NCBI GenBank assembly: GCA_018222765.1
Contig: JAAEZT010000012.1
Span: forward strand, 1-64,000
Direction: 5' to 3'
DNA from: a bacterium
Lineage (GTDB): Bacteria > Verrucomicrobiota > Verrucomicrobiia > Verrucomicrobiales > Akkermansiaceae
DNA length: 64,000 bases
In this document: positions 46,644 to 63,800 of the stretch, in pieces
Position numbering within the stretch: the stretch's first letter is position 1
How the letters are laid out: each line of letters opens with the position of its first letter
Made by a program: the position numbers and the translations under genes
Notes under the pieces: generated by a model
Seen by the model: only the letters and a program-made list of their open reading frames with translations
Databases searched by the model: none
What the model was told of the DNA's origin: nothing

Positions 46644-47666
46644 ATGAAACGTCTGTCTCTCGTTATCCCGCTTCTTTTGGCTTTGGCCTGTCCTTTCTTT
46701 CTCTCCGCTAAGAAGGAAGATCCAAAGAAAATCGTGTTTATTGCGGGAAGTCGCAGCCACGCTTCGGGTGAGCACGAATTCCGGGCCGGTTGCATGTTGC
46801 TGGCCAAGGCTCTCAACGAGCAGAGCGGATTGAATGTCGAAGCGGTGGTCGTGGGCAAGGACTGGAAGAAAGATAAATCAATCTTGGAGGATGCCGATGC
46901 CATCGTGATTTTTGCCGATGGCACGAGCGGGATTGGCGGAGAGTGGGAATACCTCGACGGACTGGCCAAAAAGGGCGTGGGAATGACTTTCATGCACTAC
47001 GCAGTGCATCCCAATCCAGCGCAGGGGAAGCAATACTACCAGCCGTGGATTGGCGGAGCGATGGAGTCCGGTTGGTCTGTGAATCCTCACTGGGTCGCCG
47101 ACATGAAAGTGATGCAGGGGCACGAGATTTCCAACGGAGTGCCTGATGTGGTGACCTGCCTGGATGAGTTTTACTACAACATGCGCTTTGTGGATGATCG
47201 CCAGAGCGTGCACAACTTTGTCACGGCGACACCGACCCGCGACAACATGCATCGCTACATTAATTTGTGGAATCAACACGGAGTTGATGGCTTGAATAAA
47301 GAGCAAACACTCATGTGGGGATACGAGCGCCCCGGAGGAAAAGGTCGTGGAGTTGGCTTCACCGGCGGGCATTATCATCATGGTTGGGCTCTTGATGGGT
47401 TTCGGACGGTGGTGCTGAATGCTATCGTGTGGACGGCGGGGATTGAGGTTCCCGAGGGCGGTGTGAAATCGAAGTCGCTGACTGAAGATGATCTCAACGC
47501 GAATTTGGACGACTACGGGAAGAATCAGAAGCGATTGAAGCTTCCGAATGTCGAGGATTGGAAAAAGCTGCCGCCGGCCAAGGTGAATGAAGCACGCGAA
47601 GCAGGATTTAAGAACGAAGCCAAGCCGAAGAAAAAAGTGTCGCAGTCGGGCTCAAAAAAAAAGTAG
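46644..47666 (+). CDS. Exported ThuA-domain protein
   Basis: A 340-residue protein with signal peptide MKRLSLVIPLLLALACPFFLSA. The ThuA glutamine-amidotransferase-like fold shows IVFIAGSRSHASGEHE, DADAIVIFADG, GVGMTFMHYAVH, PLAT-like HYHHGWALDGFR and VVLNAIVWTAGIEVPEGGV. It ends in a Lys-rich tail KPKKKVSQSGSKKK, encoded by an A9 run directly before TAG. The following frame is open through this end (see the slippery-site entry), so this may be the first part of one longer secreted protein. ThuA is linked to trehalose or other sugar use, mechanism unclear. Confidence 0.88.
   Translation: MKRLSLVIPLLLALACPFFLSAKKEDPKKIVFIAGSRSHASGEHEFRAGCMLLAKALNEQSGLNVEAVVVGKDWKKDKSILEDADAIVIFADGTSGIGGEWEYLDGLAKKGVGMTFMHYAVHPNPAQGKQYYQPWIGGAMESGWSVNPHWVADMKVMQGHEISNGVPDVVTCLDEFYYNMRFVDDRQSVHNFVTATPTRDNMHRYINLWNQHGVDGLNKEQTLMWGYERPGGKGRGVGFTGGHYHHGWALDGFRTVVLNAIVWTAGIEVPEGGVKSKSLTEDDLNANLDDYGKNQKRLKLPNVEDWKKLPPAKVNEAREAGFKNEAKPKKKVSQSGSKKK
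47654..47666 (+). other. Candidate -1 frameshift site (A9 with A-AAA-AAG) at thuA stop
   Basis: Nine adenines at 47654-47662 followed by GTAG give, in the thuA frame, AAA AAA AAG TAG. The heptamer A_AAA_AAG at 47657-47663 is the classic bacterial -1 slippery sequence (as in dnaX and IS3 elements), with a stop immediately after it. Slipping back one base continues as KKKVEGEWIYQSPLI into the haem-protein frame, which is open from 47612. A weak CCGC/GCGG hairpin sits at 47690-47706. Alternatives are transcriptional slippage on the A run or a missing A in the assembly. Confidence 0.55.
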
Positions 47667-47713
47667 AGGGTGAATGGATTTACCAAAGTCCGCTGATAAA
47701 AAGCGGCGGGAAA

Positions 47714-50704
47714 GTGAAGTTTGCGGAGATCGATCTTCCGCTTAAAAAACGAGATCTCTATTTGGCAGTATCCGGTGAGGGAGACATTAGTCACGACTGG
47801 GCTGACTGGTTGGAGCCGAAGATTACCCTCAAGGATGGAAACCTTGTTGATCTCACTGGAATCAAATGGGAGTCGGCAACCACCGGGCACGCAAGGGTTC
47901 AGATCGGGAGGAACTGTGAGGGAAAGCCGCTGAGCGCAGGAGGCAAGGTTTATCAAAAGGGGATCGGAGTGCATGCCCGGTCAATGATTCACTATCGACT
48001 ACCGGAGGGTGCGAAGAGGTTTCAAGCCAAGGTGGCTTTGGATGACGGTGGAGCAATCAGGGATGGCGGGAGGACGCCGGCCTCGGTGCGATTTTTCGTG
48101 TTTGATAAAAAGCCTGCCAAGATTCCCGAGGGACAGGTCGAAGCCTTTGACCCCGATTCGCTTGAGGCGGAAAAAGTTCCCGTTACTGCCTTTGAGGTGC
48201 CGGATGATTTGGAGGTAACCGTCTGGGCCACGAGCCCGATGCTCTACAATCCCACGAATATGGATACGGATGCCAAGGGGCGGATTTGGGTGGCGGAAGG
48301 AGTGAACTATCGTCGGCATCAAAAGCGTCGTTCCGAGGGAGATCGCATTGTCGTCCTCCAAGACACCAATGGTGATGGAAAAGCTGATAGCTCGCATACC
48401 TTTGTGCAGGATCCCGAGTTGGTCGCTCCCCTTGGCGTGAGTGTGCTCGATAATCAAATCGTGGTGGCCCAGCCGCCTCATCTGATCGTTTACACCGACG
48501 TTGACCGGAATCTCCGATTCGACCCGAAGGTCGATAAGCGGGAGAATCTTCTCTCGGGTTTCAATGGCAAGAATCACGATCATAGTCTTCATGCTGTGGT
48601 TGCCGGTCCAGATGGAAAGTGGTACTTCAACCAGGGAAACTGTGGGGCGATGTTTACCTCGAAGGACGGCAAGACCTTCAAGATTGGCGGGCCGTATCGA
48701 GGTGGTGGGGGAGAGTGGTTCGTCGATAATATTAAATTCGGCGGTGAGAAAAGTGATGACGGCCATGTCTGGGTCGGTGGCTTTGCTGGCAAGATGGATC
48801 CCGATGGGAAGAATGTGCAGATCATCGGGCATGGCTTTCGGAATAGCTACGAACACACCGTGACTTCGATGGGAGATGTCTTTCAGAATGACAACGACGA
48901 CCCGCCGGCGTGTCGCACTACATGGTTGATGGAAGGCGGATTCCTGGGCTTCTTTTCGCCCGATGGAAAGCGAACCTGGCAGGCTGATCGCCGACCGGGG
49001 CAATCGGTTCCGCGCGCGCATTGGCGTCAGGATGATCCGGGGACGCTTCCGCCGGGCGATGTTTATGGTGGTGGATCACCGACTGGCATTTGCTACTACG
49101 AACACGGAGCCTTACCGAAGAAATACGAGGGTCTTCTCTTGAGTTGCGAGGCGGCGAAGCGGGTGGTTTATGGATATCACCCAAAGCCCGAAGGCGCGAA
49201 CTTCAAGCTGGAGCGATTTGATTTCTTCAAGAGTAAGAGCGGGAATATGTTCCGCCCCTCAGATGTTATGGTTGGAGCCGATGGTGCGATTTATGTTGCG
49301 GATTGGTATGATCCAGGAGTCGGTGGCCACGCGGATCGGGATGGAAGTTGCAGTGGAACGATTTATCGAATCGCGCCGAGAGGATTTAAGCCGAAGCTTT
49401 CGCAAGCAGGGCAATCGAATTCCATCACAGAGGCGGTCAAGATGCTGAAGAGCCCGGCGATCAATGTGCGCTATGCGGGATTCAAAATACTCCGCGATAC
49501 CGGGCCCAAGGCCTTGCCTGCCCTCATGGAGGTGATGAGAGATTCGAACAAGTATGTTCGTGCCCGCGCGATTCATTTGCTGCCATACATGGGGAAAGAG
49601 GGAAGGATGGTGCTCAATGGTCTGCTCGGAAATAAGTCCGCAGGAATGCGCCTCATGGCGATGCGTTCTTTGAGAGCCGCTGGCGAAGATCCCGTGAGGC
49701 TCGCAAAAGCTCTGGTGGGTGATGCGAGTCCCCAAGTGCGCCGGGAGGTTGCTGTCGCTCTACGAGATGTTGATCCACAGGCGAAGATCCCTTTGGCTGT
49801 GGAATTGCTTCATCATTACGACGGAGACCGAACCTATCTTGAAGCCTGCGGCTTTGCTGCGGAAGGAGTGGAGGAAAAAGTTTGGAATGGATTGCGCCTT
49901 GTTAAAAAGGGAGCCGGTGCTTTGGATTGGAATCCGAACCTGGCGAGGATCGCCTGGCGGCTCAAGATTCCGTCTTTGATTCCTGCGCTTCACGAACGCG
50001 CGGCGAGTCCGAAGCTCTCAGATGCGGATCGTTTGTTCGCAGTTGATTCCTTGGCCTTCATTGATGACGTTAAGTCGGTGCCCGCGATGGCGTCTCTGGC
50101 CAAAGTTCCCGGTCCGGTGGGGGCGTCGGCTTCGCAGTGGTTGATTCATCTTTCCAATACCCGGTGGTCTCAGTTCGGAGTGAAGGATGTTCTTAAGAAA
50201 GAAGGTATTTACGACCCCAGCAAGGTGGAGATTGTTTCGGTGCTTGTTCCTGAGGCTACGAAATCGTCGCTTCCTCCGCTGAAGGATTTAATGAAGTTGA
50301 AGGGCGATATTGCCCGGGGGAAGACGACGGCAGCGCGTTGTATCATGTGTCATCAGATCGAAGGACAGGGCGTGAACTTTGGTCCTGATCTGAAGGGGTG
50401 GATTGAGCGGCAGGGCAAAGAGATGTTTTTGCGTTCCGTGGTCAATCCGTCCGAGCAGATTGCGCAAGGTTATACTGGCTCGTCGGTCAAGTTGAAGGAG
50501 GGTGGCGAAGTGCAAGGCTTGGTCTTGAGTAAGTCGAATCCAGTCATTGTTCAGTCCCAGGGTGGACTGGTGCAGATGATTCCTGCCGACAAGGTTGAGA
50601 AAGTGAGCAACATGGCACATTCGCTGATGCTTTCGGCCGATCAATTGGGGCTGAGCGCCCAAGATTTGGCTGACCTGACCTCGTATCTTGAAACCTTGAA
50701 GTGA
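47714..50704 (+). CDS. PVC-type haem-binding CxxCH protein with NPCBM-like N-terminal domain
   Basis: At least 996 residues. The GTG at 47714 is the first conventional start, but the frame is open back to 47612 and encodes plausible domain sequence there (GEWIYQSPLIKSGGKVKF). It begins without a signal peptide, although a haem-c protein must be exported, so the N-terminus is likely supplied by thuA through frameshifting. Residues about 15-140 are NPCBM-like (LYLAVSGEGDISHDWADWLEP, GIGVHARSMIHYRLPEG). A PVC beta-propeller follows (GRIWVAEGVNYR, GPDGKWYFNQG, GADGAIYVADWYDPG), then HEAT repeats and CIMCH at residues 876-880. Probable periplasmic sugar oxidation or electron transfer. Confidence 0.85.
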   Translation: MKFAEIDLPLKKRDLYLAVSGEGDISHDWADWLEPKITLKDGNLVDLTGIKWESATTGHARVQIGRNCEGKPLSAGGKVYQKGIGVHARSMIHYRLPEGAKRFQAKVALDDGGAIRDGGRTPASVRFFVFDKKPAKIPEGQVEAFDPDSLEAEKVPVTAFEVPDDLEVTVWATSPMLYNPTNMDTDAKGRIWVAEGVNYRRHQKRRSEGDRIVVLQDTNGDGKADSSHTFVQDPELVAPLGVSVLDNQIVVAQPPHLIVYTDVDRNLRFDPKVDKRENLLSGFNGKNHDHSLHAVVAGPDGKWYFNQGNCGAMFTSKDGKTFKIGGPYRGGGGEWFVDNIKFGGEKSDDGHVWVGGFAGKMDPDGKNVQIIGHGFRNSYEHTVTSMGDVFQNDNDDPPACRTTWLMEGGFLGFFSPDGKRTWQADRRPGQSVPRAHWRQDDPGTLPPGDVYGGGSPTGICYYEHGALPKKYEGLLLSCEAAKRVVYGYHPKPEGANFKLERFDFFKSKSGNMFRPSDVMVGADGAIYVADWYDPGVGGHADRDGSCSGTIYRIAPRGFKPKLSQAGQSNSITEAVKMLKSPAINVRYAGFKILRDTGPKALPALMEVMRDSNKYVRARAIHLLPYMGKEGRMVLNGLLGNKSAGMRLMAMRSLRAAGEDPVRLAKALVGDASPQVRREVAVALRDVDPQAKIPLAVELLHHYDGDRTYLEACGFAAEGVEEKVWNGLRLVKKGAGALDWNPNLARIAWRLKIPSLIPALHERAASPKLSDADRLFAVDSLAFIDDVKSVPAMASLAKVPGPVGASASQWLIHLSNTRWSQFGVKDVLKKEGIYDPSKVEIVSVLVPEATKSSLPPLKDLMKLKGDIARGKTTAARCIMCHQIEGQGVNFGPDLKGWIERQGKEMFLRSVVNPSEQIAQGYTGSSVKLKEGGEVQGLVLSKSNPVIVQSQGGLVQMIPADKVEKVSNMAHSLMLSADQLGLSAQDLADLTSYLETLK

Positions 50705-50738: not shown

Positions 50739-52973
50739 ATGACTCTTATGATTCGTTTGATATTGGTGGGGCTTTTGCTCCCTAGTCCGCTATGGGCGCA
50801 AGGTCTCTCCGCGCTTCCCGATGGCATGGCTCCGAATGACTCCCGTTTGGAGGCTCCGGTGACGCTTCACGATTACCATCCCTTTCGTCCGGTTGCTTCC
50901 AAAGAAGAATGGAGGGGACGTCAGGAGGAAATCGTGCGTCGGATTGCGGTAAGTTGTGGCTTGTGGCCACAGCCGACCAAGACGCCGCTCAATGCCGTCA
51001 TTCACAAAAAGATTGATCAAGGGGACTATACTGTTGAAGCAGTGTTATTTGAATCGATGCCGGGTCATTATGTGACAGGGAGTTTGTATCGTCCCGCCGG
51101 TGAGTCCCTGAAGATCGGGGTGAAAAATGGCAATCGTCCCGGTGTGCTCTGCGCACATGGGCATTGGCACGATGCCCGCTACGCGCACAAATCCGATGAC
51201 CATGCGAAGCGAGAGATCGCGATTGGAGCCGAGCGTTTTTTGAATGGAGGTAAATCTGTTCATCAGGCGCGTTGTGTTCAGTTGGCGCGGATGGGGTGTG
51301 TTGTTTTCTTTTACGACATGCTGGGCAATGCCGACTCGATGCAGTTTCCCGAACACCGCCGTGGGCCCCGTCCCGAAACCAATGGCGAGAAAATGGGCGA
51401 GTGGGGCTTTGTCTCAAAAAATGCCTCGGCGCGATTGCAGACAAATTTTGGTTTGCAGACATGGAATAGTATTCGCTCACTGGATTTTGTTCTGGGATTG
51501 GACGGCGTGGATCCGGAGCGAATTCTCGTCACCGGGGCGAGTGGAGGTGCGACGCAAACGATGATGGTCAGCGCCCTCGATGAGCGGGTGAAAGCGGCTT
51601 TCCCCTGCGTCATGGTTTCCACTGCGATGCAAGGCGGTTGCACTTGTGAGAACGGGCACTACTTGCGAATAGGGCAGGGGAATGTCGATATCGCGGCGGC
51701 TGTTGCTCCTCGTCCCTTGGGGTTAACGGCTGCTGACGACTGGACGATTGAACTGAAGGAGAAAGGTCATCCCGATTTGAAGAAACTTTATGAAATGGTC
51801 GGGGCTCCCCGGAATTATGAAGCGCATTTCGACGTTCATTATAAGCACAATTACAACCACGTCTCGCGGACGCATCTTTATCAGTTTGTAAATCGGCATT
51901 TCGCCCTGGGGCTGAAGTCGCCCGTGTTGGAGCGTGATTTTGAATTGCTCGGGCAGAAGGAGTTATCGGTGTTCAATGAAGTCCATCCCAAACCTTTGGG
52001 AAAACAAGTTGGTTTGCCTCATGAGAAAGCCCTCAATGAATGGTGGGCCGAGGATTCGGACCGGCAGATTCAGGCGCTTTTAACGCCAAAGACGTCCGAG
52101 CAATTTGCAAAGACCCGGGAAGTGGTCGGTGGCGCGTTGAAGGTGATGATCGGGCGGGGTTTGCCTTCAGTTGGGGAGGTGAATTTTGAACTGGTTGGCA
52201 AGGAAACCCGGGATGGTTTCATGGAGCTGAGTGGTCTTGTTCAAAACACGGAGCATGGTGAAGAAATTCCAGCATCTTTTCTCTATCCGCTCGGATCGTG
52301 GTCGGGCCATTTGGTAATTTGGCTGTCGCCTGAGGGAAAGAAAGGGATGTTTCAAAGTGGCGATAAACCAATTAACGAAGTACGGAGGCTCTTGAAGCAA
52401 GGTGTCGCGGTGATGGGCTTGGATCTCTTTGCGCAGGGTGAGTTTTTGAAATCAGCGGCTCTTGCGAAATCGAGGGGTAAGAATGCCGACGTCATATACT
52501 CGAAGAATCAGAATGTAAAATTACCCACCGATAGCTGGCAACGATCTCCGGTTTACTACTATGGCTACAACCACAGCACCTTCGCTCGTCGCGTTCATGA
52601 TGTGCTGACTGCGGTGGCATTTGCGCAGCACAGCGAAAACTATGACGTGAAGAAACTTTCCCTGGTCGCTCCGAAGGGTGCCGGGCATTGGGCGGCAGCG
52701 GTTCGGGCCGTGGTCGGGGGAGAGGTGATTCAAAAAGCGTGGATCGACACGAGTGGGTTTAGATTCGCCAATCTGAAAAACCACTGGGACGCCAATTTCC
52801 TTCCGGGTGCGGTTAAGTATGGTGACATCGCCGCTCTTCTCACCCTGAATGCGCCCTTCGACACTGCCTTGCTCGATGAAGAGCTGCTGACCGAATCGCT
52901 AAAAAAATTAGCAGCTAAAACCGGAGGTAAGGTTTCCCCAAGGAAAGACCTCGTAGCCTATTTCTTGAGGTGA
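50739..52973 (+). CDS. Exported acetyl-xylan-esterase-like protein, two hydrolase modules
   Basis: A 744-residue protein from ATG 50739 (GGGAGGG just upstream), signal peptide MIRLILVGLLLPSPLWAQG. The N-terminal alpha/beta hydrolase module (about 90-400) has GVLCAHGHWHD and the nucleophile elbow GASGGATQTMM. His candidates are in YKHNYNHVSR. The C-terminal module (about 480-744) resembles a second hydrolase but its elbow reads APKGAGHW, lacking the Ser, so it is probably non-catalytic. It lies 34 bases after the haem-protein gene and overlaps the convergent CE15-like gene by 16 bases. Likely deacetylates plant or algal polysaccharide. Confidence 0.82.
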   Translation: MTLMIRLILVGLLLPSPLWAQGLSALPDGMAPNDSRLEAPVTLHDYHPFRPVASKEEWRGRQEEIVRRIAVSCGLWPQPTKTPLNAVIHKKIDQGDYTVEAVLFESMPGHYVTGSLYRPAGESLKIGVKNGNRPGVLCAHGHWHDARYAHKSDDHAKREIAIGAERFLNGGKSVHQARCVQLARMGCVVFFYDMLGNADSMQFPEHRRGPRPETNGEKMGEWGFVSKNASARLQTNFGLQTWNSIRSLDFVLGLDGVDPERILVTGASGGATQTMMVSALDERVKAAFPCVMVSTAMQGGCTCENGHYLRIGQGNVDIAAAVAPRPLGLTAADDWTIELKEKGHPDLKKLYEMVGAPRNYEAHFDVHYKHNYNHVSRTHLYQFVNRHFALGLKSPVLERDFELLGQKELSVFNEVHPKPLGKQVGLPHEKALNEWWAEDSDRQIQALLTPKTSEQFAKTREVVGGALKVMIGRGLPSVGEVNFELVGKETRDGFMELSGLVQNTEHGEEIPASFLYPLGSWSGHLVIWLSPEGKKGMFQSGDKPINEVRRLLKQGVAVMGLDLFAQGEFLKSAALAKSRGKNADVIYSKNQNVKLPTDSWQRSPVYYYGYNHSTFARRVHDVLTAVAFAQHSENYDVKKLSLVAPKGAGHWAAAVRAVVGGEVIQKAWIDTSGFRFANLKNHWDANFLPGAVKYGDIAALLTLNAPFDTALLDEELLTESLKKLAAKTGGKVSPRKDLVAYFLR

Positions 52974-54193
52974 TGATCGGCGAAGTTCATGAACTGAGTC
53001 CAGTCGAACGTTTCAATCGAGTGGCCTCCGTTGCGGATGTGGTAACCGACGTCTGACTTGATGATGGCTCTACCGACTGGCGGGCAATTTTCGGATTCAA
53101 GGCCCTTTTTTCCGAGGAGTTTGTATGCTGGGCTCGCGTGGTAGGCGGAAAGGTATTCTCCTCTGCCGTCTGCCCAGGTGTCTCCGACAGCGCTATGAAC
53201 GTAGATGGGGCGTGGAGCAATGCATGCGAGGAGCATGTGTTGATCGACGGGAAGGTCATCTTCGTTGTTGACGAATTTCCAGGCATTACGACAAAGCCAG
53301 TAGGGGAATCGGGTGACCATTTTTTCAAGCGTCTCGCCTGATTTGCGTCGCCACAGGGCGGCGCCGGCGCAACCGGATTGAGCAGAGATAGCGAGAGCGA
53401 AACGTCGGTCTTGGGCCGCAGTCCAGAGAGTTGCCTTACCCATCTTGGAATGTCCCATGATTGCGACCCGCTCGGCGTCGATGTCTTTGTCGGTTTCGAG
53501 GTAGTCCATCGCCCGTGAAGCGCCCCAGGCCACTGTGGAGAGAACGCCCCATTCAGATGCCTTCGGGAAACTCTGCCCTTTGGGGTAAAAGAGCTTGTGA
53601 ATGCCTTTTAGGAATTCCACTTCATTGTGTCTCACGAGATCTTGTTGGTAGACCGCGATAAAGCCGTAGCCGCGCTTGAAAAACTCTCCGATGGGCCATC
53701 CGTTTTTGAAGCAATTTCTTTTGAGGAAGTGAACATCGAAATCGTTTCCATGAGTGCTGCTGAAACTGTGTTTCATGAAGGCTGGGACGGGTTTATCGAC
53801 ATTGTTGGGAACGAAGACGAGAATGAGCATGTCAACCCGGCCTCTCTCATTTTCGAATCTGATACGGACGTCTTTGCGAGTGCCTTTTCCGCCGAGAAAG
53901 TTCTTGTCCTCTTTGAGAACCTTGAAGCTCGTCTTGATTGGCGAGGATGGTTTTGGAACAGTACCGTATACCAAATTCCCAAAGAGGGACATGATTTGAG
54001 GACGCCGAATGTTGAACCATTCTTCGGGTGTTGTGATTGGCTTTCCTTCTGAAGAAGTTAAGAGAGGGGGTAGGTCGTAGGCCGGAAGATTTTCTTCGTC
54101 GTAATTAACGTCTTTGTCGAGTTCTTTGGGCTCCTTTGCCTCAAGAGCGCAAATTGACGCGACATACAGAAGGAGCGATAGGATGGATTTCAT
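52958..54193 (-). CDS. CE15-like glucuronoyl esterase
   Basis: A 411-residue exported esterase with signal peptide MKSILSLLLYVASICALEA. The nucleophile motif GHSKMGKATLWTAAQD, followed by SAQSGCAGAALWRR and the histidine in RNGGHSIETFDW, matches bacterial CE15 enzymes, which cleave esters between glucuronic acid and lignin or other alcohols. The VYGTVPKPSSPI segment is a typical N-terminal landmark. It sits beside an acetyl-esterase-like gene and a PQQ-type sugar dehydrogenase. Exact substrate not certain. Confidence 0.86.
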   Translation of the reverse strand: MKSILSLLLYVASICALEAKEPKELDKDVNYDEENLPAYDLPPLLTSSEGKPITTPEEWFNIRRPQIMSLFGNLVYGTVPKPSSPIKTSFKVLKEDKNFLGGKGTRKDVRIRFENERGRVDMLILVFVPNNVDKPVPAFMKHSFSSTHGNDFDVHFLKRNCFKNGWPIGEFFKRGYGFIAVYQQDLVRHNEVEFLKGIHKLFYPKGQSFPKASEWGVLSTVAWGASRAMDYLETDKDIDAERVAIMGHSKMGKATLWTAAQDRRFALAISAQSGCAGAALWRRKSGETLEKMVTRFPYWLCRNAWKFVNNEDDLPVDQHMLLACIAPRPIYVHSAVGDTWADGRGEYLSAYHASPAYKLLGKKGLESENCPPVGRAIIKSDVGYHIRNGGHSIETFDWTQFMNFADHHLKK

Positions 54194-55357: not shown

Positions 55358-55485
55358 GAGCGTATTGAAGGCAAAATTGAGGATCTTGCAAGCAGGCGCT
55401 CGGAAAATAGGGAGTGCGGCTCGGTGACTCCTCTGTCTGGTTGATTTTGCTCGCCGGGGCTTTCGCCTTGGCTAAATTACTAGGG

Positions 55486-56967
55486 ATGCGTTTGAAGATT
55501 TTATCAGGGTTTTTCATGCTGGGATCATTGGGCCTAGTTGAAGCTGCTCGTCCTAATGTCGTTTTCATTTTGACCGATGACCAGAGGTCCGATGCATTGA
55601 GCTGTATGGGGCATCCTCATTTGAAGACGCCCCGGATTGACCAGTTGGCGGCGGAAGGGGTCTTGTTTAAGAATCACTTCTGCACGACTTCCTTGTGCTC
55701 ACCGAGCCGGGCTTCGATTTTGGGAGGGTTGTATGCGCATTCGCACGGGGTGGTGAACAATTTCACGGACTATCCAAAGGGGCTTCCGACCTTTCCGCGT
55801 CAGCTTCAGGGCGCGGGATATTCCACAGCCTACATTGGTAAATGGCACATGGGCGAAGCGGACGATAGCAAGCGTCCGGGTTTTGATCACTTCGTGACAC
55901 ACCGGGGACAGGGAAAGTATTTCGACACGGAGTTTCGGGCCAACGATGGCGAGCGAAAAGTGGTTCCCGGCTACTACACCACGGTGGTCACAGACATGGC
56001 AATTGATTGGATGGAAAAGCAGGAGGGGGGAGAGAGACCCTTCATGTTGATGCTGGGGCACAAGGCGCCGCACAGTTTTTATTTTCCCGAGCCGAAGTAT
56101 GAGAATGCTTTTGATCAAGTTCGCGTGCCATATCCTCAGACGGCTTTTCAGTTGGATGACAAGCCGACTTGGATTAAGCAGCGCCTGAGCACCTGGCATG
56201 GGATCTACGGACCGCTTTTCGATTGGCGGAAGAAGTTCCCGGATACTTCGGCGGCAGGAATGCTTCACTTTGAGGATATGGTGCGGGCTTACTGGGGGAC
56301 TTTGCTTTCAGTGGATGATTCGGTGGGTCGCATTTACGATTATCTCAAGCGGACTGGTCAGCTCGACAACACGCTTTTCATTTTCACCAGCGACAATGGT
56401 TTGCTCGAAGGGGAGCATGGGATGGTGGACAAGCGAACGGGTCACGAGCCTTCATTGCGGATTCCCTTGGTTGTCCGCTATCCGGCCTTGGTCTCGCCCA
56501 AGTATCCAAAGAAAATCGAGGCGCAAACTTTGACTTTGGACTTTGCTTCCTCGATTTTGGAAATCTGCGGAGCTCCGCCTTTGAAGAAGACGCAGGGTAA
56601 GTCATGGAAGAAGCTCATCACCACCGGAGATCCCGAGTGGCGAACCAGTTGGTATTACGAATACAACTACGAGAAGCAATTTCCCTACACACCCAACGTG
56701 CGTGCTTTGCGGACCGATGAGTGGAAGTATATTCGCTATCCCCATGGTGATGGTTCTCCGGACAAGCACATGGCGGAACTCTACAATTTGAAATCCGACC
56801 CCGGTGAAACGAGGAACTTGATCAAGGATGCCCGTTATGAGGCGTTGGTTGCCAAGTTGCGTGAGGAACTGGACCAGCGGATTCAAGAGGCCAATCCCGG
56901 GAAGAAGGATAAAATGCCCATGGATGAGGGAATAAAGGGGGAATTACCTGACGAGAAGATTCGATAG
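55486..56967 (+). CDS. Cys-type sulfatase
   Basis: A 493-residue exported sulfatase from ATG 55486 ([20 protein letters not shown] signal). [12 protein letters not shown] binds calcium, and the maturation motif [11 protein letters not shown] starts at Cys71. [22 protein letters not shown] and [13 protein letters not shown] complete the active site. It differs from the sulfatase at 34454-35989 in the sequence following the signature, so the two likely act on different substrates. First gene of an operon with DUF1549/DUF1553 and DUF1501. A frame open from 55414 adds a non-signal-like N-terminus. Confidence 0.93.
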
Positions 56968-56981
56968 AGCTTTTTTGAATC

Positions 56982-59390
56982 GTGAACTCAGAAATTCGTC
57001 TCCTCGTCCTAGCTTTCGTTGGCTGGGCCTTGGTGACGAAAGTTTGGAGCAAGCCTGATCCCAATCATTGGTCGTTTCACGAGGTGGCGGAGCGGAGCGT
57101 TCCGGATCTCGGGGAGAAGAATGGCATCGATGGTTTTTTGTTGCAGCGGTTGAAGGAGGAAGGGCTTTCATTTTCGAAGCGTGCGGAGCCTGTTAATCTG
57201 TTGCGACGTATCTTTCTGGATTTGACCGGGTTGCCTCCGACGCCAGATGAAATTGATTCGTTCGAAAAATCTTGGAAGGAAGATGCGAGCGAAGCCTATA
57301 ATTCTGCGGTGGAGCGGTTACTCGTGTCTCCCCGATATGGGGAGCGCTGGGGTCAGCATTGGCTCGATGCCGTGCGCTTTGCTGAGACTCATGGATTCGA
57401 GGTGAACACTCCGCGCCCCAACGCCTGGCCGTATCGTGATTACGTGATTCGGGCATTCAATGAGGATCTTCCATACGACCAGTTTGTCTTCGAACAACTG
57501 GCTGGCGATACGGTGTCGAAAGACGCGGCCACAGGTTTTTTGGTGACAGCTGCAGCTCTTTTACGGGGGCAGGTGGGGAAGGATGACGAATCGATCAAGC
57601 GGGCGCGTCAGGATGAGTTGAATGAGATTGTCATCAATACTTCGGCGACTTTTCTGGGGCTGACGGTTCATTGTGCACGCTGTCACGATCACAAATTCGA
57701 TGCCATTTCCCAAAAGGACTACCATCGGATGCAAGCGATCTTCGGTGGTGTTCGTTACGGGAATCGCCCGCTTCGAGATGATTCCGAAAAGCGGGAAGAG
57801 GAAATCCGATCTCTCGATATGCAGATTGCTTTGGTTGAGCAGGGGCTGAAGAAGATGGGAGTTCGTCTTCCGGTAAGTCCTCTTCTGAATACGGAAAGTT
57901 TTGCTCCAATTTTGGCTCGGTATTTAAGATTCACGATTCGGAAGACCAATGGCGTAGAGCCCTGCATTGATGAGTTGGAAGTTTGGTCTTCTGGAGAGAA
58001 ATCAACCAATGTTGCTCTGGCATCAAATGGTGTCGTCGCAAGTTCCTCGGGAGATTACCAGGACCCGTCGAAGCATCGCTTGGAATACATTAATGATGGT
58101 AAGTACGGCAATGGCCGGAGTTGGATCGCCAGTGAGACCCAGGGAGGTTGGGTCATACTCGATTTTGGAAAGCCAATCCTGATCAATCGTGTGACGTGGG
58201 GTAGGGACCGAAAGGGCGTTTACAAGGATCGCTTGCCGATTGATTATGTCATCGAGGTTGCCGCAGACAAGGGTGCTTGGCAGGAGGTCGCAGGTTCGAA
58301 GGGTCGCTTGATGAGTCTCGATCCAAGTAAGCTGGGAGGGGCGCAGCGCTCGGCGGTGTTAGATCACCAAAGCCTGAGCGAGGCTCGTCGCCGACTCGAT
58401 GGAAAGAAGATGATTTTTGGAGGAGTCTTTCAAAAGCCACCGCCGATGCACCTTCTCAATCGGGGTGATGTGACGCAGCCGAAAGAAGAAGTTTCTCCAG
58501 GGATTCCGGAGGTGTTTGGTTCATTGAAAATGTCTTCTGCCACGAGTGATGTCGATCGAAGAAAGGGTTTAGCCCGATGGATTGCTTCGCCAAAGAATCC
58601 GCTCACTGCGCGCGTGATGGTGAACCGGGTGTGGCATTTGCATTTCGGAGCGGGCCTAGTGAATACGCCATCCGATTTTGGTGGGATGGGCGGGAAGCCC
58701 TCGCATCCCGGGCTTCTTGATTGGTTGGCGGTGCGCTTCGTAAAGGACGGATGGTCGATCAAGAACTTGCATCGGCTCATTCTAAGTTCGAAAGCCTACC
58801 AGCAATCCGGACGTCCAAATTCCTTGGGCATGGAGAAGGATGCCAACAATCGATTGCTTTGGCGCTTTCAACCCCGCCGACTCGAAGCTGAGGCGATTCG
58901 GGATTCGATCTTGCAAGTTTCGGGTTCCCTTGATCTCAAAATGGGTGGGCCGGGATTCAGTTTCTTCGAGCCTAACACGAATTACGTGCGGGTTTATAAT
59001 CCCAAGGAAGAATTTGGTCCGCTGGAATGGCGTCGCATGATTTACGGGCACCGCGTGAGGATGGAGCAGGATGGGGTATTTGGGGCGTTTGATCGACCGG
59101 ACGCGGGATTAATTTGTTCGAAGCGAACGCAATCAACGACGCCGCTGCAGTCCTTGAATCTTTTCAATAGTCGTTTCGTGGAGCAGCAGTCTGAGATTTT
59201 TTCGAAGCGTCTGGTGGCAGAAGCGGGAGAAAAAGTTAACGGGCAGATTGTCTTGGCTTTCCAATATTGTTTTGGACGGGTGCCTACGGCGGAGGAGGTA
59301 AGCAAAGGTCTGGATTTTGTGAATCAACATGGTTTGTCGCAATTCTGTCGCGTCCTCTTTAACACCAACGAATTTCTTTTTCTACCATGA
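56982..59390 (+). CDS. DUF1549/DUF1553 protein with CxxCH and discoidin-like insertion
   Basis: An 802-residue exported protein, GTG start, N-terminal hydrophobic stretch ([17 protein letters not shown]). DUF1549 spans about 45-250 with [17 protein letters not shown] and [15 protein letters not shown], and contains [10 protein letters not shown] (Cys231, Cys234, His235), a haem-c-type motif. Residues about 305-450 are a discoidin (F5/8 C)-like sandwich ([31 protein letters not shown]). DUF1553 occupies about 510-790 with [20 protein letters not shown]. The N-terminal cytochrome domain common in this family is absent. It precedes DUF1501 with ATGA overlap. Confidence 0.88.
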
Positions 59391-60841
59391 TTGATTCCTA
59401 TCGTGTCGCGATGATGGACCGACGAAATTTCCTGAGTCGGGCTGGTTCAGGTCTTAGTGGAATTGCGCTGAGCCAACTCTTGAGTTCACAGGGATTGTTG
59501 GCAAATGCCTTGGTCGATCCTCTCCAACCGAATGCCCGCCGGGAGCCTGAGTTTGACCCTCCGGCGAAGCGGATTATTATGGTCTTTTGCTCGGGCGCGC
59601 TGAGCCAGTTGGAGACTTTTGACTACAAGCCGGAGTTGGTGAAGCGATCAGGGCAGCCGCTCCCGACGATGGCGGAGGGCTTTAAGAGTTTTCAGGGAGA
59701 GAATGGAAATTTGGCGGCTCCGCAGTTTGAGTTTCGTCCCCGAGGGGATTGTGGGAAAATGACTTCGGATCTTCTCCCCGAGATTGGAAACCTGGTGGAT
59801 GAATTCTGTTTTATTCATTCGCTGACGAGCAAGACGAATACCCATGGGCCAGGGGAGAATTTCATGTCGACCGGGTTTACCCTGGATGGTTTTCCAAGCA
59901 TGGGGGCATGGGCGACCTACGCCTTGGGAAGTGAATCGGAAAATCTTCCGGGCTTTGTGGCTCTGCCGGATCCCCGGGGTGTGCCGCAGTCGAGTGTGAA
60001 CAACTGGGGGCCGGGATTTCTTCCGGCGGTGTTTCAAGGAACGCCCTTCAATATGCAAAAGCAGATTGGCAATTTACAAAGTCCGAAAGGAGTGGGCAAA
60101 GAGACTGACGAAGCGGCGAGGCGATATTTAAAGTTTTTGAACCAACGCCATCAGGAGGAGTTTCCAGGCGATACGGAATTGGCGGCACGGATTGCGAGCT
60201 ATGAGCTGGCGGCGCGAATGCAGTTGAGTGTGCCCGAAGTGACCGATCTTTCAAAAGAACCCGCTTCGCTCAAAAAACTCTATGGAGCGGATAGTCGTGA
60301 TCCGGTGAAGGCAGGCTTTGCCAAAAATTGCATGCTGGCCCGCAAGCTGGTGGAGGACGGAGTGCGATTTGTGCAGGTGTTTAATGGAGCCTACGCCATG
60401 GGTGAGGGTGTCGGGAACTGGGACGGGCATCGGACTTTGAAAAAACAGTATGGGATCCACGGAGCGATTCTCGACCAACCAGTGGCGGCCTTGATTCGTG
60501 ATCTCAAATCACGTGGCTTGTTCGACGATACGTTATTCGCTTTTGTGACCGAATTCGGACGCATGCCAACATTCCAAAAAGGCGCAAGTGGGCGCGATCA
60601 CAATCCGGATGGCTTTACTGTTTTCTTGGCGGGAGCGGGCGTGAAGGCTCCAATGAGTTATGGCGCGACCGACGAGTTCGGGCACCGGGCGGTGGATAAG
60701 GTCGTAACGATGCATGACTTTCACGCGACCCTCCTCCATTTACTTGGGTTGAATCACGAGAACCTGACCTTCTATCACAACGGTATCGAGCGACGTCTTA
60801 CCGATGTCCATGGTCATGTGTTGAGTGATCTTTTAATCTAA
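59387..60841 (+). CDS. DUF1501 family exported protein
   Basis: A 484-residue DUF1501 protein starting by overlap with the DUF1553 gene (ATGA). The N-terminus [20 protein letters not shown] is Tat-like. Family marks are [66 protein letters not shown] and GRDHNPDGF. The coupling to DUF1549/DUF1553 is the usual arrangement in PVC bacteria, and the sulfatase upstream suggests a shared role in processing sulfated sugars. It converges on the right-edge cytochrome gene with 9 bases between. Confidence 0.92.
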
Positions 60842-60850
60842 CAGGAGGGG

Positions 60851-63800
60851 TTACTCGGTGGGAAATCCAGAAGCTATTACGCGCTTAGCGAGAATGGCTG
60901 GGTCGAAGGAGGAGGGATCTGATTCGTGAATTAAGATGGAGTAGCGAAGACGGTAGTGTTCGCCTTTTTTTACGGTAGTTGTGATGTAGGGCTCCCTTCG
61001 TTCTTTTGGTTGCTTGGGAAATGGGTTGGAAACGAGGACTCCGTAGTCGCGACTGTGGGACCAGCTTTTGCGAGGGTTTTCGGGGTGTGGGAGGACCAAG
61101 ATTCCCGCTTGCTTGTCGTTGATCGGGCCGGAGTAGTCGATCCAACGGAATTTCTTTCCCCAGGTCCCCGAACCATTGAATTCATCTCGGTTGTTGGTGA
61201 TTCGGCCCTTTCCTCCCTCGACGCGAAGAGGGCTGGCAATGCGCAGAGCGAGTCCGCTTTCCTCCTGATCACCAAAGGTGAAATCGCGTTCGTCGTTGTA
61301 GAATTTTGAATCCCAGTGAAGGAGAATCCCTTCCTCGACGTGTTGAAAGTAATAGCGGGTTTCTTGGATGCAGATTGTTTCCGTACGATCCTGGGCGAGA
61401 TAGCGATCGCGGGTTTCGAAACATGCCCAACCGGGTTTGTTGATCGGGACTTCGGAGAAGTTTTCGAGAACTACCGGAGAAGTAAACCTCCAGTAGTCAT
61501 TGCTTTCAATCCAGCCAAAGCTCATCCAAAGCCCGGGGTGCATGAATGGATGGATGATGCTTTTCCCGTTACGATCCAGGTCTTCCGGAGTGCGGGCGGG
61601 AAAATTGCGGGTGACCTGAATTCCGGAAGGCGTCTTGAAATTGATAAAGGCCCGCCGGGTGATCTTGGGATGATCAAGCAGGTAGCTCGCGATTTGTTTT
61701 TCATTTAGGATGAGTTGGAGTTCGTTGTCCTTTTTGTGGAATTTAAAAACGCCATTTGCGGGTTGAAGCGCCTTGGTTTTTTTTAACGTCAGCATCCACG
61801 CGGTGATGTCAGCCAGCTGTTGACTGGTGAGCATGGCTCCGAATCCTTCGGGCATGGCAGATACACTCAGTGCGGAACGGGCTTTGATTTTCTTGCGGGA
61901 GATCTCTACCGTGGATCCGCCGGTTTGAGCAAGGGTTACGCTCCGCCCTGTCTCCTGAAGGATGATGCCGAGATGGGTTTTGCCTGCATGGGTGGTGATT
62001 TGGTGGGCTGCGAAGCCTTCGACGATGCTCGCGCTGGGCTTGATGATTGATTCGATGATGGTTGAGGCATCGGCACGCGAACCGATGTCGGAAAGGTCGG
62101 GTGCGTGATTGTTGCCCCGGCCGAGAACCTGATGGCAAGAGCTACAGTTGGCTCCGAGAGGACTAAAAAAGAGATCATGTCCTCGGGTTGGATCGGCTTC
62201 TTTGAGAAGAGGGAGGATGGTTGATTCTGTGGCAAGTTTACCGTCGGATGAGAGAAGAGTGGGTCGCGCGGCTAGGAGATAGTTTCCTTTCCTCGCCCGA
62301 ATATCGTCGCGATTTGATCCGAGCGTTAATGGTCCTGCTGGGAGGTCTGCGCGATAGACCCTCATTTTCTTGGGATCGTCCCCCTCGATGATGAGCGGAG
62401 TTTCTTCCCATTTTCCACGTGCCCAGCCTGGAAGTTTTTCACCGCGAGCGTCATCGATAAAATAGACGGTGGAGGGGTATTTGAGATTGAGGCCTACCTT
62501 GGTTCCACTGGAAGCGTCGGCATCGCTGCAGGCAGTCTGCAGAAATGCCAAACCGGCAAGTTCGGGCGGAACCTTGGTGATGCGATATCCCCGGTCAGTA
62601 TATAATCGGGTTCCTGCTTGCAGAAGGGCGGTGCGGTAAAGGTGGCCCGAGCTTGGTGTGATGTCGGAGAATGGAACGACGAGGGGAGCTTGATGTTTGG
62701 GCTCTCCTTCCGCATCCAGCGGACGGCCACGCAGTTCGTGTTGATGTTTTCCTCCGAGACGTTTTGCGGCGATCTGAGCGACGGGAGGATGGGTGTCGTC
62801 GAGCAGTGTTATAATTTCCTTGTCGGAGAGGGCGTCTTTTTCGAGGAGAGTGAGGAGAATTGCGAGACGAACCTGAGGGCGCTTGTCGGTCAGAAGTCTC
62901 TTTTGTTCGGGGATTGTGAGGAGATCCATGAGCGCTCCCCAGCCTGCGTAGTAGACCACTCGGTCGGACTCCTTGGCCAAGAGGTCGACAATCGATTGAG
63001 AGGAGTTTTTTTGGTCGAGTTCGCGAAGAGCAATGACGGCGGCGAGACGCACCTGCGGATTGGAGTTTTTGAGCGCAGCGAGGATCTTGAGATCCATTCT
63101 CTCATTGAAGGCGGCAAGACGAATACTCTGGATGAGTTGATTCGGGGTGGAATCAAACCACGACTTGGGATTGATCCTTCCGAGCGTCCAAACTAGCCAG
63201 GTTTCGTGTGCGGTCGTGCGTTTGGGATTGCGAAGCGCAGCAAGGAGTTGGGATTTTACTTTGTTCCCGCGATTGATGAGTTCCTCTTGGGCATTACTTC
63301 GCCAAACCGGAAGGTGGCTTCCGAGTTGCCCGATGAGTGCCTCTACGGTATTCGCTTTTTCGGCTTTAACGGCTGGTGAAAACTCCTTCGGCCACAGCCG
63401 GTAAATTCGGCCTTCATTGGCGAGCTTGTTGTGTTCAAAGTGAGCGCCATATTGGCGTCCCCAACTTGAGATCCAAATTGCTCCATCGGGACCGATTTCG
63501 ATGTCAACCGGATCGAAGGATCGGCCCTTGCTGAGGGGCATGCTTCGTCCGCCCTCGGCATGGGCGAGGACGGGGAGCTGAGTGATGGCAGATTTTCGCC
63601 AGGCGCCATCCCAGCGGGATTTGTAGATGAGGACTTCCCGGTTGAGCCAGTCGTTGATGAGGAAAACATCGCGATATTTTTCGGGATAGTCGGGATGGTT
63701 GGCGTAGATCACACCAGCTCCCGAGCCTTCGAAGAGCGGCCCGCTGGAGGGGGCGGTGGGGAGGTGCTTGTCTCCTTTCCAGGCGTAGCTCCAGGTATGT

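What the first reader, a model, noticed from the sequence alone, without database searches (positions are those of the whole stretch)
46644..50704. Possible -1 frameshift fusing ThuA to a PVC haem protein
The thuA frame ends AAA AAA AAG TAG on an A9 tract, containing the canonical A-AAA-AAG heptamer with a stop directly after it. The next frame is open back to 47612 through this site, and the in-between sequence (KVEGEWIYQSPLIKSGGKVKF) reads as real domain sequence. The downstream haem protein has no signal peptide of its own, while ThuA has one. A slip would make a secreted ThuA-NPCBM-propeller-cytochrome of about 1350 residues. Both ThuA alone and the fusion could be made.
Basis: partly seen in the sequence, partly recalled or inferred. 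Interest (0 to 1): 0.75.

Follow-up and report, generated by a model that had tools for sequence, protein, structure and literature searches.

The report
Conserved slippery tract joining two genes
In a small group of uncultured bacteria, a run of nine adenines appears to let the gene-reading machinery slip, so that a secreted enzyme is sometimes made fused to a haem protein that otherwise could not leave the cytoplasm.

Summary
thuA (46644-47666) ends TCA AAA AAA AAG TAG on an A9 tract. The haem ORF is open in the -1 frame through it, with no start codon before GTG 47714 and no signal peptide.

It is not a one-genome error: two more species, from other assemblies, have the identical CAAAAAAAAAGTAG and frames. 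The haem frame is under purifying selection (dN/dS 0.09-0.11; wrong frames 2.0-3.2). Of 43 distinct NPCBM-haem homologues compared, 11 are fused in frame to ThuA, 29 have their own signal peptide (judged by eye), and these three have neither. The nearest relatives (66-70%) are in-frame fusions. A fourth species, nested in the clade, has lost most of the haem gene; its tract is A8.

Best reading: realignment at A9 gives free secreted ThuA plus a secreted ThuA-cytochrome of 1353 residues. The heptamer fits -1 ribosomal slippage, but A9 without clear stimulators fits RNA polymerase slippage (A9 to A10) at least as well. Sequence cannot separate them, and DNA phase variation is not excluded. The kind of recoding is known; using it to supply a haem protein's export signal is the unusual part.

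The parts
46644..47666 (+). thuA, 340 aa, 0-frame product
   Evidence: PF06283, 44.9 bits vs cut-off 33.4; no NCBIfam match at 1e-3
46644..46709 (+). Signal peptide of ThuA (MKRLSLVIPLLLALACPFFLSA)
   Evidence: By eye; no predictor run
47612..47663 (+). Overlap in which both the thuA frame and the haem frame are open
47633..47638 (+). Earlier A6 run inside the overlap, same in all four clade genomes
   Evidence: any role in slippage untested
47654..47662 (+). A9 tract, proposed slip site
   Evidence: same in G014 and G001, A8 in G004
47657..47663 (+). In-frame A_AAA_AAG heptamer
47664..47666 (+). TAG stop of thuA
47669..47710 (+). Two possible weak hairpins (47669-47684, 47689-47710)
   Evidence: z -1.29 to -1.76, not shared by the G001 fold
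47663..50704 (+). Haem-protein part in the -1 frame, 1013 aa after the slip
47714..47716 (+). GTG, first possible start in the haem frame; GTA in G001
47852..48106 (+). NPCBM domain match
   Evidence: PF08305, 79.3 bits
48206..49381 (+). PVC-type propeller, TIGR02604
   Evidence: 457.5 bits vs cut-off 122.2
49514..49687 (+). HEAT repeat match
   Evidence: PF13646, 47.4 bits
50303..50695 (+). Haem-binding domain TIGR02603, CIMCH at 50339-50353
   Evidence: 131.2 bits vs cut-off 68.15; motif read

Best explanation
thuA and the haem gene are one expression unit with a recoding site in the linker. Most transcripts keep nine adenines and give free secreted ThuA (340 aa). A fraction gain one adenine during transcription (A9 to A10), possibly helped by -1 ribosomal slippage on A_AAA_AAG, and give a 1353-residue protein: ThuA, lysine-rich linker, NPCBM, PVC propeller, HEAT, c-type cytochrome. 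It is exported by ThuA's signal peptide, so that its CxxCH can receive haem outside the cytoplasm. Shown: the sequence, the shared frame relation, purifying selection, the lack of an own start and signal peptide. Inferred: the slip itself, its agent and rate, export and haem attachment. I put about 0.85 on recoding of either sort and 0.55 on RNA polymerase as the main agent.
For: Identical A9-G-TAG and -1 geometry in G000, G014 (= JAQWZU010000135.1) and G001 (= NHEN01000004.1). Haem-frame dN/dS 0.113, 0.087, 0.111 at dS 0.236, 0.203, 0.144 over 936 codons; wrong frames 1.96-3.16. Amino-acid changes 51, 35, 33 against null means 120.6, 98.2, 76.6; no stop where 4.7, 4.0, 4.0 were expected (none in 5, 6, 5 of 500 null runs); no length change. 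The 17 codons between slip site and GTG 47714 have 1, 3, 2 synonymous and no other changes. 40 of 43 distinct NPCBM-haem homologues have an own signal peptide by eye (29) or an in-frame ThuA fusion (11); the other three are this clade. Nearest relatives G228 (70%) and G231 (66%) are in-frame fusions. G004, nested in the clade (98/89), has A8 and most of the haem ORF deleted. For polymerase slippage: long A runs look avoided; nine As slip in Thermus dnaX, with 50% of product altered (PMC1088944, passages); A11 gives about 20% in Citrobacter tssM1 with no stimulator found (PMC4256274, sections 7 and 8).
Against: No read, RNA or protein data. Only three species, modestly diverged. A homopolymer is hypermutable, so A9 in all three could be recurrent; PMC1088944 itself says a conserved run does not exclude replication slippage. 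The A8 control is one lineage in one assembly. For the agent: the only tRNA-Lys found has anticodon UUU, and a weak hairpin lies 5 nt after the heptamer in the window and G014 folds, so ribosomal slippage may dominate.
Confidence: 0.55

Rival explanations
1. The fusion is made mainly by -1 ribosomal slippage on A_AAA_AAG.
For: Heptamer in frame directly before the stop; only tRNA-Lys(UUU) found, the condition under which A_AAA_AAG is shift-prone in E. coli (PMC4066793 and PMC5009743, passages); weak 6-bp hairpin 5 nt downstream in two of three species' folds.
Against: No Shine-Dalgarno-like element by eye; predicted structure weak (10-18 of 200 shuffles fold as well) and different in G001. Without stimulators, shift-prone heptamers in E. 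coli gave ratios of at most 10 over a background averaging 0.055% (PMC4066793 section 17).
Confidence: 0.3
2. DNA-level phase variation: replication slippage switches cells between A9 (ThuA alone) and A10 (fusion).
For: Homopolymer; A8 in G004. Phase variation at poly-A tracts is reported in another bacterium (PMC3441752, search listing only).
Against: Three of three genomes with an intact haem ORF have A9, none of four has A10, although the selected haem ORF would need A10 under this reading.
Confidence: 0.1
3. The haem ORF is a decaying remnant cut off by a shared frameshift.
For: G004 has lost most of it; no own start or signal peptide.
Against: Strong purifying selection, no stops or indels in three species.
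Confidence: 0.03
4. Assembly or base-calling error; really one continuous gene.
For: The nearest relatives are continuous fusions; homopolymers are error-prone.
Against: Identical tract in three genomes, two of them from separate public records.
Confidence: 0.01
5. The haem protein is translated separately by re-initiation near the stop and works without its own signal peptide.
For: Adjacent genes; GTG 47714 is in frame.
Against: GTG 47714 is GTA in G001; the first start codon shared by all three is TTG 47762, inside the domain; 29 of 29 unfused homologues judged have a signal peptide by eye.
Confidence: 0.01

Closest known systems
Citrobacter rodentium tssM1 transcriptional frameshifting (PMC4256274; abstract, sections 7 and 8 read)
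   Same: Poly-A run shortly before a premature stop; short and full-length products from one gene; no translational stimulators found there
   Different: A11, 28 nt before the stop, and experimentally proven; here A9 directly before the stop, untested, and the extension is a whole haem protein without an export signal
Thermus thermophilus dnaX, nine As (described in PMC1088944, passages read)
   Same: A9 in the sense strand, two products
   Different: There slippage gives the shorter product; here it would give the longer one
E. coli dnaX -1 frameshift on A_AAA_AAG (PMC3711429, PMC5009743, passages read)
   Same: Same heptamer; one tRNA-Lys type
   Different: dnaX has an upstream SD-like element and a downstream hairpin; here none clear, and the slip extends the protein
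In-frame ThuA - PVC haem fusions (11 distinct loci, e.g. L108, L109)
   Same: Same domains in the same order, one signal peptide
   Different: One reading frame; no long A run in the two junctions printed (L108, L109)

Membership tests
PVC-type haem protein (TIGR02604 + TIGR02603) | Both NCBIfam models over cut-off | tested here: met
   457.5 bits vs 122.2; 131.2 vs 68.15
PVC-type haem protein (TIGR02604 + TIGR02603) | CxxCH haem-attachment motif | tested here: met
   CIMCH at 50339-50353
PVC-type haem protein (TIGR02604 + TIGR02603) | Own export signal (usual, from recall; not part of the models) | tested here: not met
   None in its own frame; supplied only through ThuA. Membership rests on the models, not on this
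ThuA (PF06283) | Pfam gathering score | tested here: met
   44.9 bits vs 33.4
Programmed transcriptional realignment | Run of about nine or more A/T before a stop, extension open in the realigned frame | tested here: met
Programmed transcriptional realignment | Run and frame relation kept while the extension is under selection | tested here: met
   3 of 3 genomes of the clade with an intact haem ORF
Programmed transcriptional realignment | mRNA with varying run length | not testable with these tools
   Needs cDNA
Programmed -1 ribosomal frameshifting | X_XXY_YYZ heptamer in frame | tested here: met
   A_AAA_AAG at 47657-47663
Programmed -1 ribosomal frameshifting | Stimulator: downstream structure or upstream SD-like element | tested here: inconclusive
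   Weak hairpins, not shared by the G001 fold; no SD-like element by eye
Programmed -1 ribosomal frameshifting | Slip on uniform mRNA | not testable with these tools
   Needs reporter plus cDNA

The most novel reading that the evidence does not exclude
A programmed slip on A9 sets the ratio between a free secreted ThuA enzyme and a ThuA-cytochrome fusion and is this clade's only way to export its haem protein: recoding used to lend a signal peptide, kept as a half-way state between the fused and two-gene forms of relatives.
Probability: 0.5. Interest if true: 0.65.

Novelty: new member of a known kind. Interest (0 to 1): 0.52.

Why it matters
In the papers whose passages I saw, recoding on A runs is described mostly for IS elements, dnaX and some single cellular genes. 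This would be a cellular case in Verrucomicrobiota, backed by selection evidence, in which recoding decides whether a redox protein is exported. Routine annotation would call two genes and leave the haem protein in the cytoplasm. Fused, slipped, two-gene and lost states in relatives make the gain and loss of a recoding site testable.

Tried and rejected
Independent start of the haem protein: disfavoured. GTG 47714 is GTA in G001; the first start shared by all three is TTG 47762, without a signal peptide. The ATG at 47674 is in another frame (read).

Strong downstream structure: tested, weak, not shared. Other long A runs in the genome: ORF context looked at for all 15 loci returned, frames printed for six; I saw no other long ORF pair joined through a run, but runs outside long ORFs were not studied further.

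High thuA divergence (dS 1.106 and 0.984 from G014 and G001, against 0.236 and 0.203 in the haem ORF) first looked like a different history. It is a local stretch at about 46860-47560, most likely allele replacement.

Trees: the careful tree of 46 ThuA rows did not finish and a quick one was printed; I then used 26 chosen rows, leaving out long-branch and some other rows. The haem tree used 34 of the 43 distinct homologues. Tree rows were best tblastn segments with gaps removed and stops written X.

Homologue count: only rows whose match starts by query residue 35 (56 rows, 43 distinct), so haem proteins lacking the NPCBM part and truncated loci were dropped. Signal peptides were judged by eye beside a crude, uncalibrated hydrophobicity score: 28 of 29 scored 6 or more, L047 scored 0 and was accepted by eye; the three of this clade scored 0. 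Two of the 11 fusions (L059, L125) are cut at the ThuA end by the contig edge.

One search printed only plus-strand loci correctly; minus-strand ThuA tails in it are meaningless and were not used.

Literature searches: I saw no report of this case in the rows listed. One search (ThuA with frameshift) listed all 3 of its papers, unrelated; the others were capped lists (15-20 rows of 223 to 23,495 papers; 12 of 26).
Full report
The sequence. The two closest named records are MAGs titled Akkermansiaceae and Verrucomicrobiaceae; several looser ones are titled Roseibacillus. thuA runs 46644-47666 and ends TCA AAA AAA AAG TAG on A9. The -1 frame is open from 47612 to 50704 and encodes NPCBM, the PVC propeller, HEAT repeats and a CxxCH haem domain. 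Its first possible start, GTG 47714, opens no signal peptide.

Not an error in one genome. G014 (the same contig as JAQWZU010000135.1; haem 95% identical) and G001 (NHEN01000004.1; 96%, contig ends at residue 937) have the identical CAAAAAAAAAGTAG and the same two frames. In the family search, 41 of 260 genomes had a haem match at E <= 1e-300. Among the 30 matches of these that came with a locus, only this clade's three showed the geometry. The other 11 came without a locus and their junctions were not read, but their open frames of 1365-1430 codons suggest continuous fusions. Weaker matches were not examined.

The haem frame is used. Pairwise dN/dS is 0.113, 0.087 and 0.111 with dS 0.236, 0.203 and 0.144 over 936 codons. 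The two wrong frames, with stop codons skipped, give 1.96-3.16. Amino-acid changes are 51, 35 and 33 against null means of 120.6, 98.2 and 76.6; no stop has appeared where 4.7, 4.0 and 4.0 were expected; lengths are equal. The 17 codons between slip site and GTG 47714 carry 1, 3 and 2 synonymous changes and no other. The linker before the tract varies at 8 of 54 sites, A9-G-TAG at 0 of 13 (too short to be strong alone).

It needs ThuA's signal peptide. Of 56 locus rows with an NPCBM-bearing haem match, 43 are distinct. Eleven are fused in frame to ThuA, 29 have an own signal peptide by eye (8 of these with a separate ThuA gene just upstream), and this clade's three have neither. Relatives' mature start (GPEPLYKSRILKSGD in L032) or fused linker (TKPLYKSPLMKSGD in L108 and L109) aligns with EGEWIYQSPLIKSGG directly after the slip site. 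AlphaFold2 on the first 177 residues gives mean pLDDT 86.9; residues 1-3 are under 50, the first block of ten averages 71, the next 84, and paired residues begin at 8. So the first few residues after the slip are linker and the rest belongs to the domain.

History. In the haem tree the clade (100/100) is sister to the in-frame fusion of G228 (82/68, weak); the fusion of G231 is sister to the group of L030, L031 and the other two-gene forms. A fused ancestor is likely, not proven. In the ThuA tree the clade sits with congeners (92/88). The 14 congener ThuA loci L130-L143 show no haem match at 1e-5 within the locus (about 1.5 kb each side at most). The three plus-strand congener tails readable (G018, G019, G002) end REAGFKK, REAKFKAK and REAAFVK, before the linker. 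G004 is sister to G001 (98/89), keeps ThuA at 91%, has A8, and keeps only the beginning and the last 73 residues of the haem protein, out of frame with each other. That is one lineage and one assembly, but in the direction programming predicts.

Mechanism. For RNA polymerase: long A runs look avoided here (14 distinct in 4.33 Mb; about 108 by scaling a mean of 1.6 per 64 kb), in line with the length of nine at which selection is evident in many genomes, and nine As slip in Thermus dnaX with 50% of the product shortened (PMC1088944, passages). Citrobacter tssM1 shows about 20% on A11 by transcript heterogeneity, without stimulators found (PMC4256274, sections 7 and 8). For the ribosome: the heptamer is in frame and the only tRNA-Lys found reads UUU. 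Of 35 RF00005 places, 30 had loci and were scanned; one of the other five is the tRNA-Leu seen in L175, and the last four are 82-89 nt long, a length typical of Leu, Ser and Tyr tRNAs (recalled). Stimulators are weak: in the window and G014 folds a 6-bp hairpin lies 5 nt and a 7-bp hairpin 25 nt after the heptamer, G001 folds differently, and 10-18 of 200 shuffles fold as well. Heptamers without stimulators in E. coli gave ratios of at most 10 over a background averaging 0.055% (PMC4066793 section 17). I lean to polymerase slippage. DNA phase variation remains possible, though none of the four clade genomes has A10.

Function, by inference. Free secreted ThuA and a secreted ThuA-cytochrome. 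The neighbours, an AXE1-like esterase (50739-52970) and a glucuronoyl-esterase-like protein (52961-54193), suggest polysaccharide breakdown, where the fusion could couple sugar oxidation to electron transfer.

Verdict. A real, conserved, probably functional recoding site. The kind is known; the case was not in the rows my searches listed.

Noticed in passing
46860-47560: The middle of the window's thuA is about 80-88% identical to G001, G014 and G004, while these three agree with each other at 91-98% there; looks like allele replacement.
   Followed up: partly
51460-52660: A second stretch, inside the AXE1-like esterase gene, falls to 65-86% identity against G014, with neighbouring blocks at about 93-95%.
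   Followed up: no
L129:2500-2855: G004 has lost most of the haem ORF; only its beginning and last 73 residues remain, out of frame, with an A8 tract.
   Followed up: yes
L030, L108, L109: ThuA and haem genes are separate or fused in close relatives, implying repeated fusion or fission.
   Followed up: partly
L089:6061-6118: The fused ThuA-haem ORF of this MAG breaks into another frame near haem residue 690; error or second frameshift not studied.
   Followed up: no
L162 (G000:C43:27028-27036): Another A9 run lies a few codons before the stop of a 495-aa ORF; the other frames close soon, no fusion seen.
   Followed up: partly
55414-63712: A sulfatase-like ORF, a pair resembling PVC DUF1549/DUF1501 genes, and another PVC haem-like protein on the minus strand (names by eye from recall, not searched; the last also matches).
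   Followed up: no
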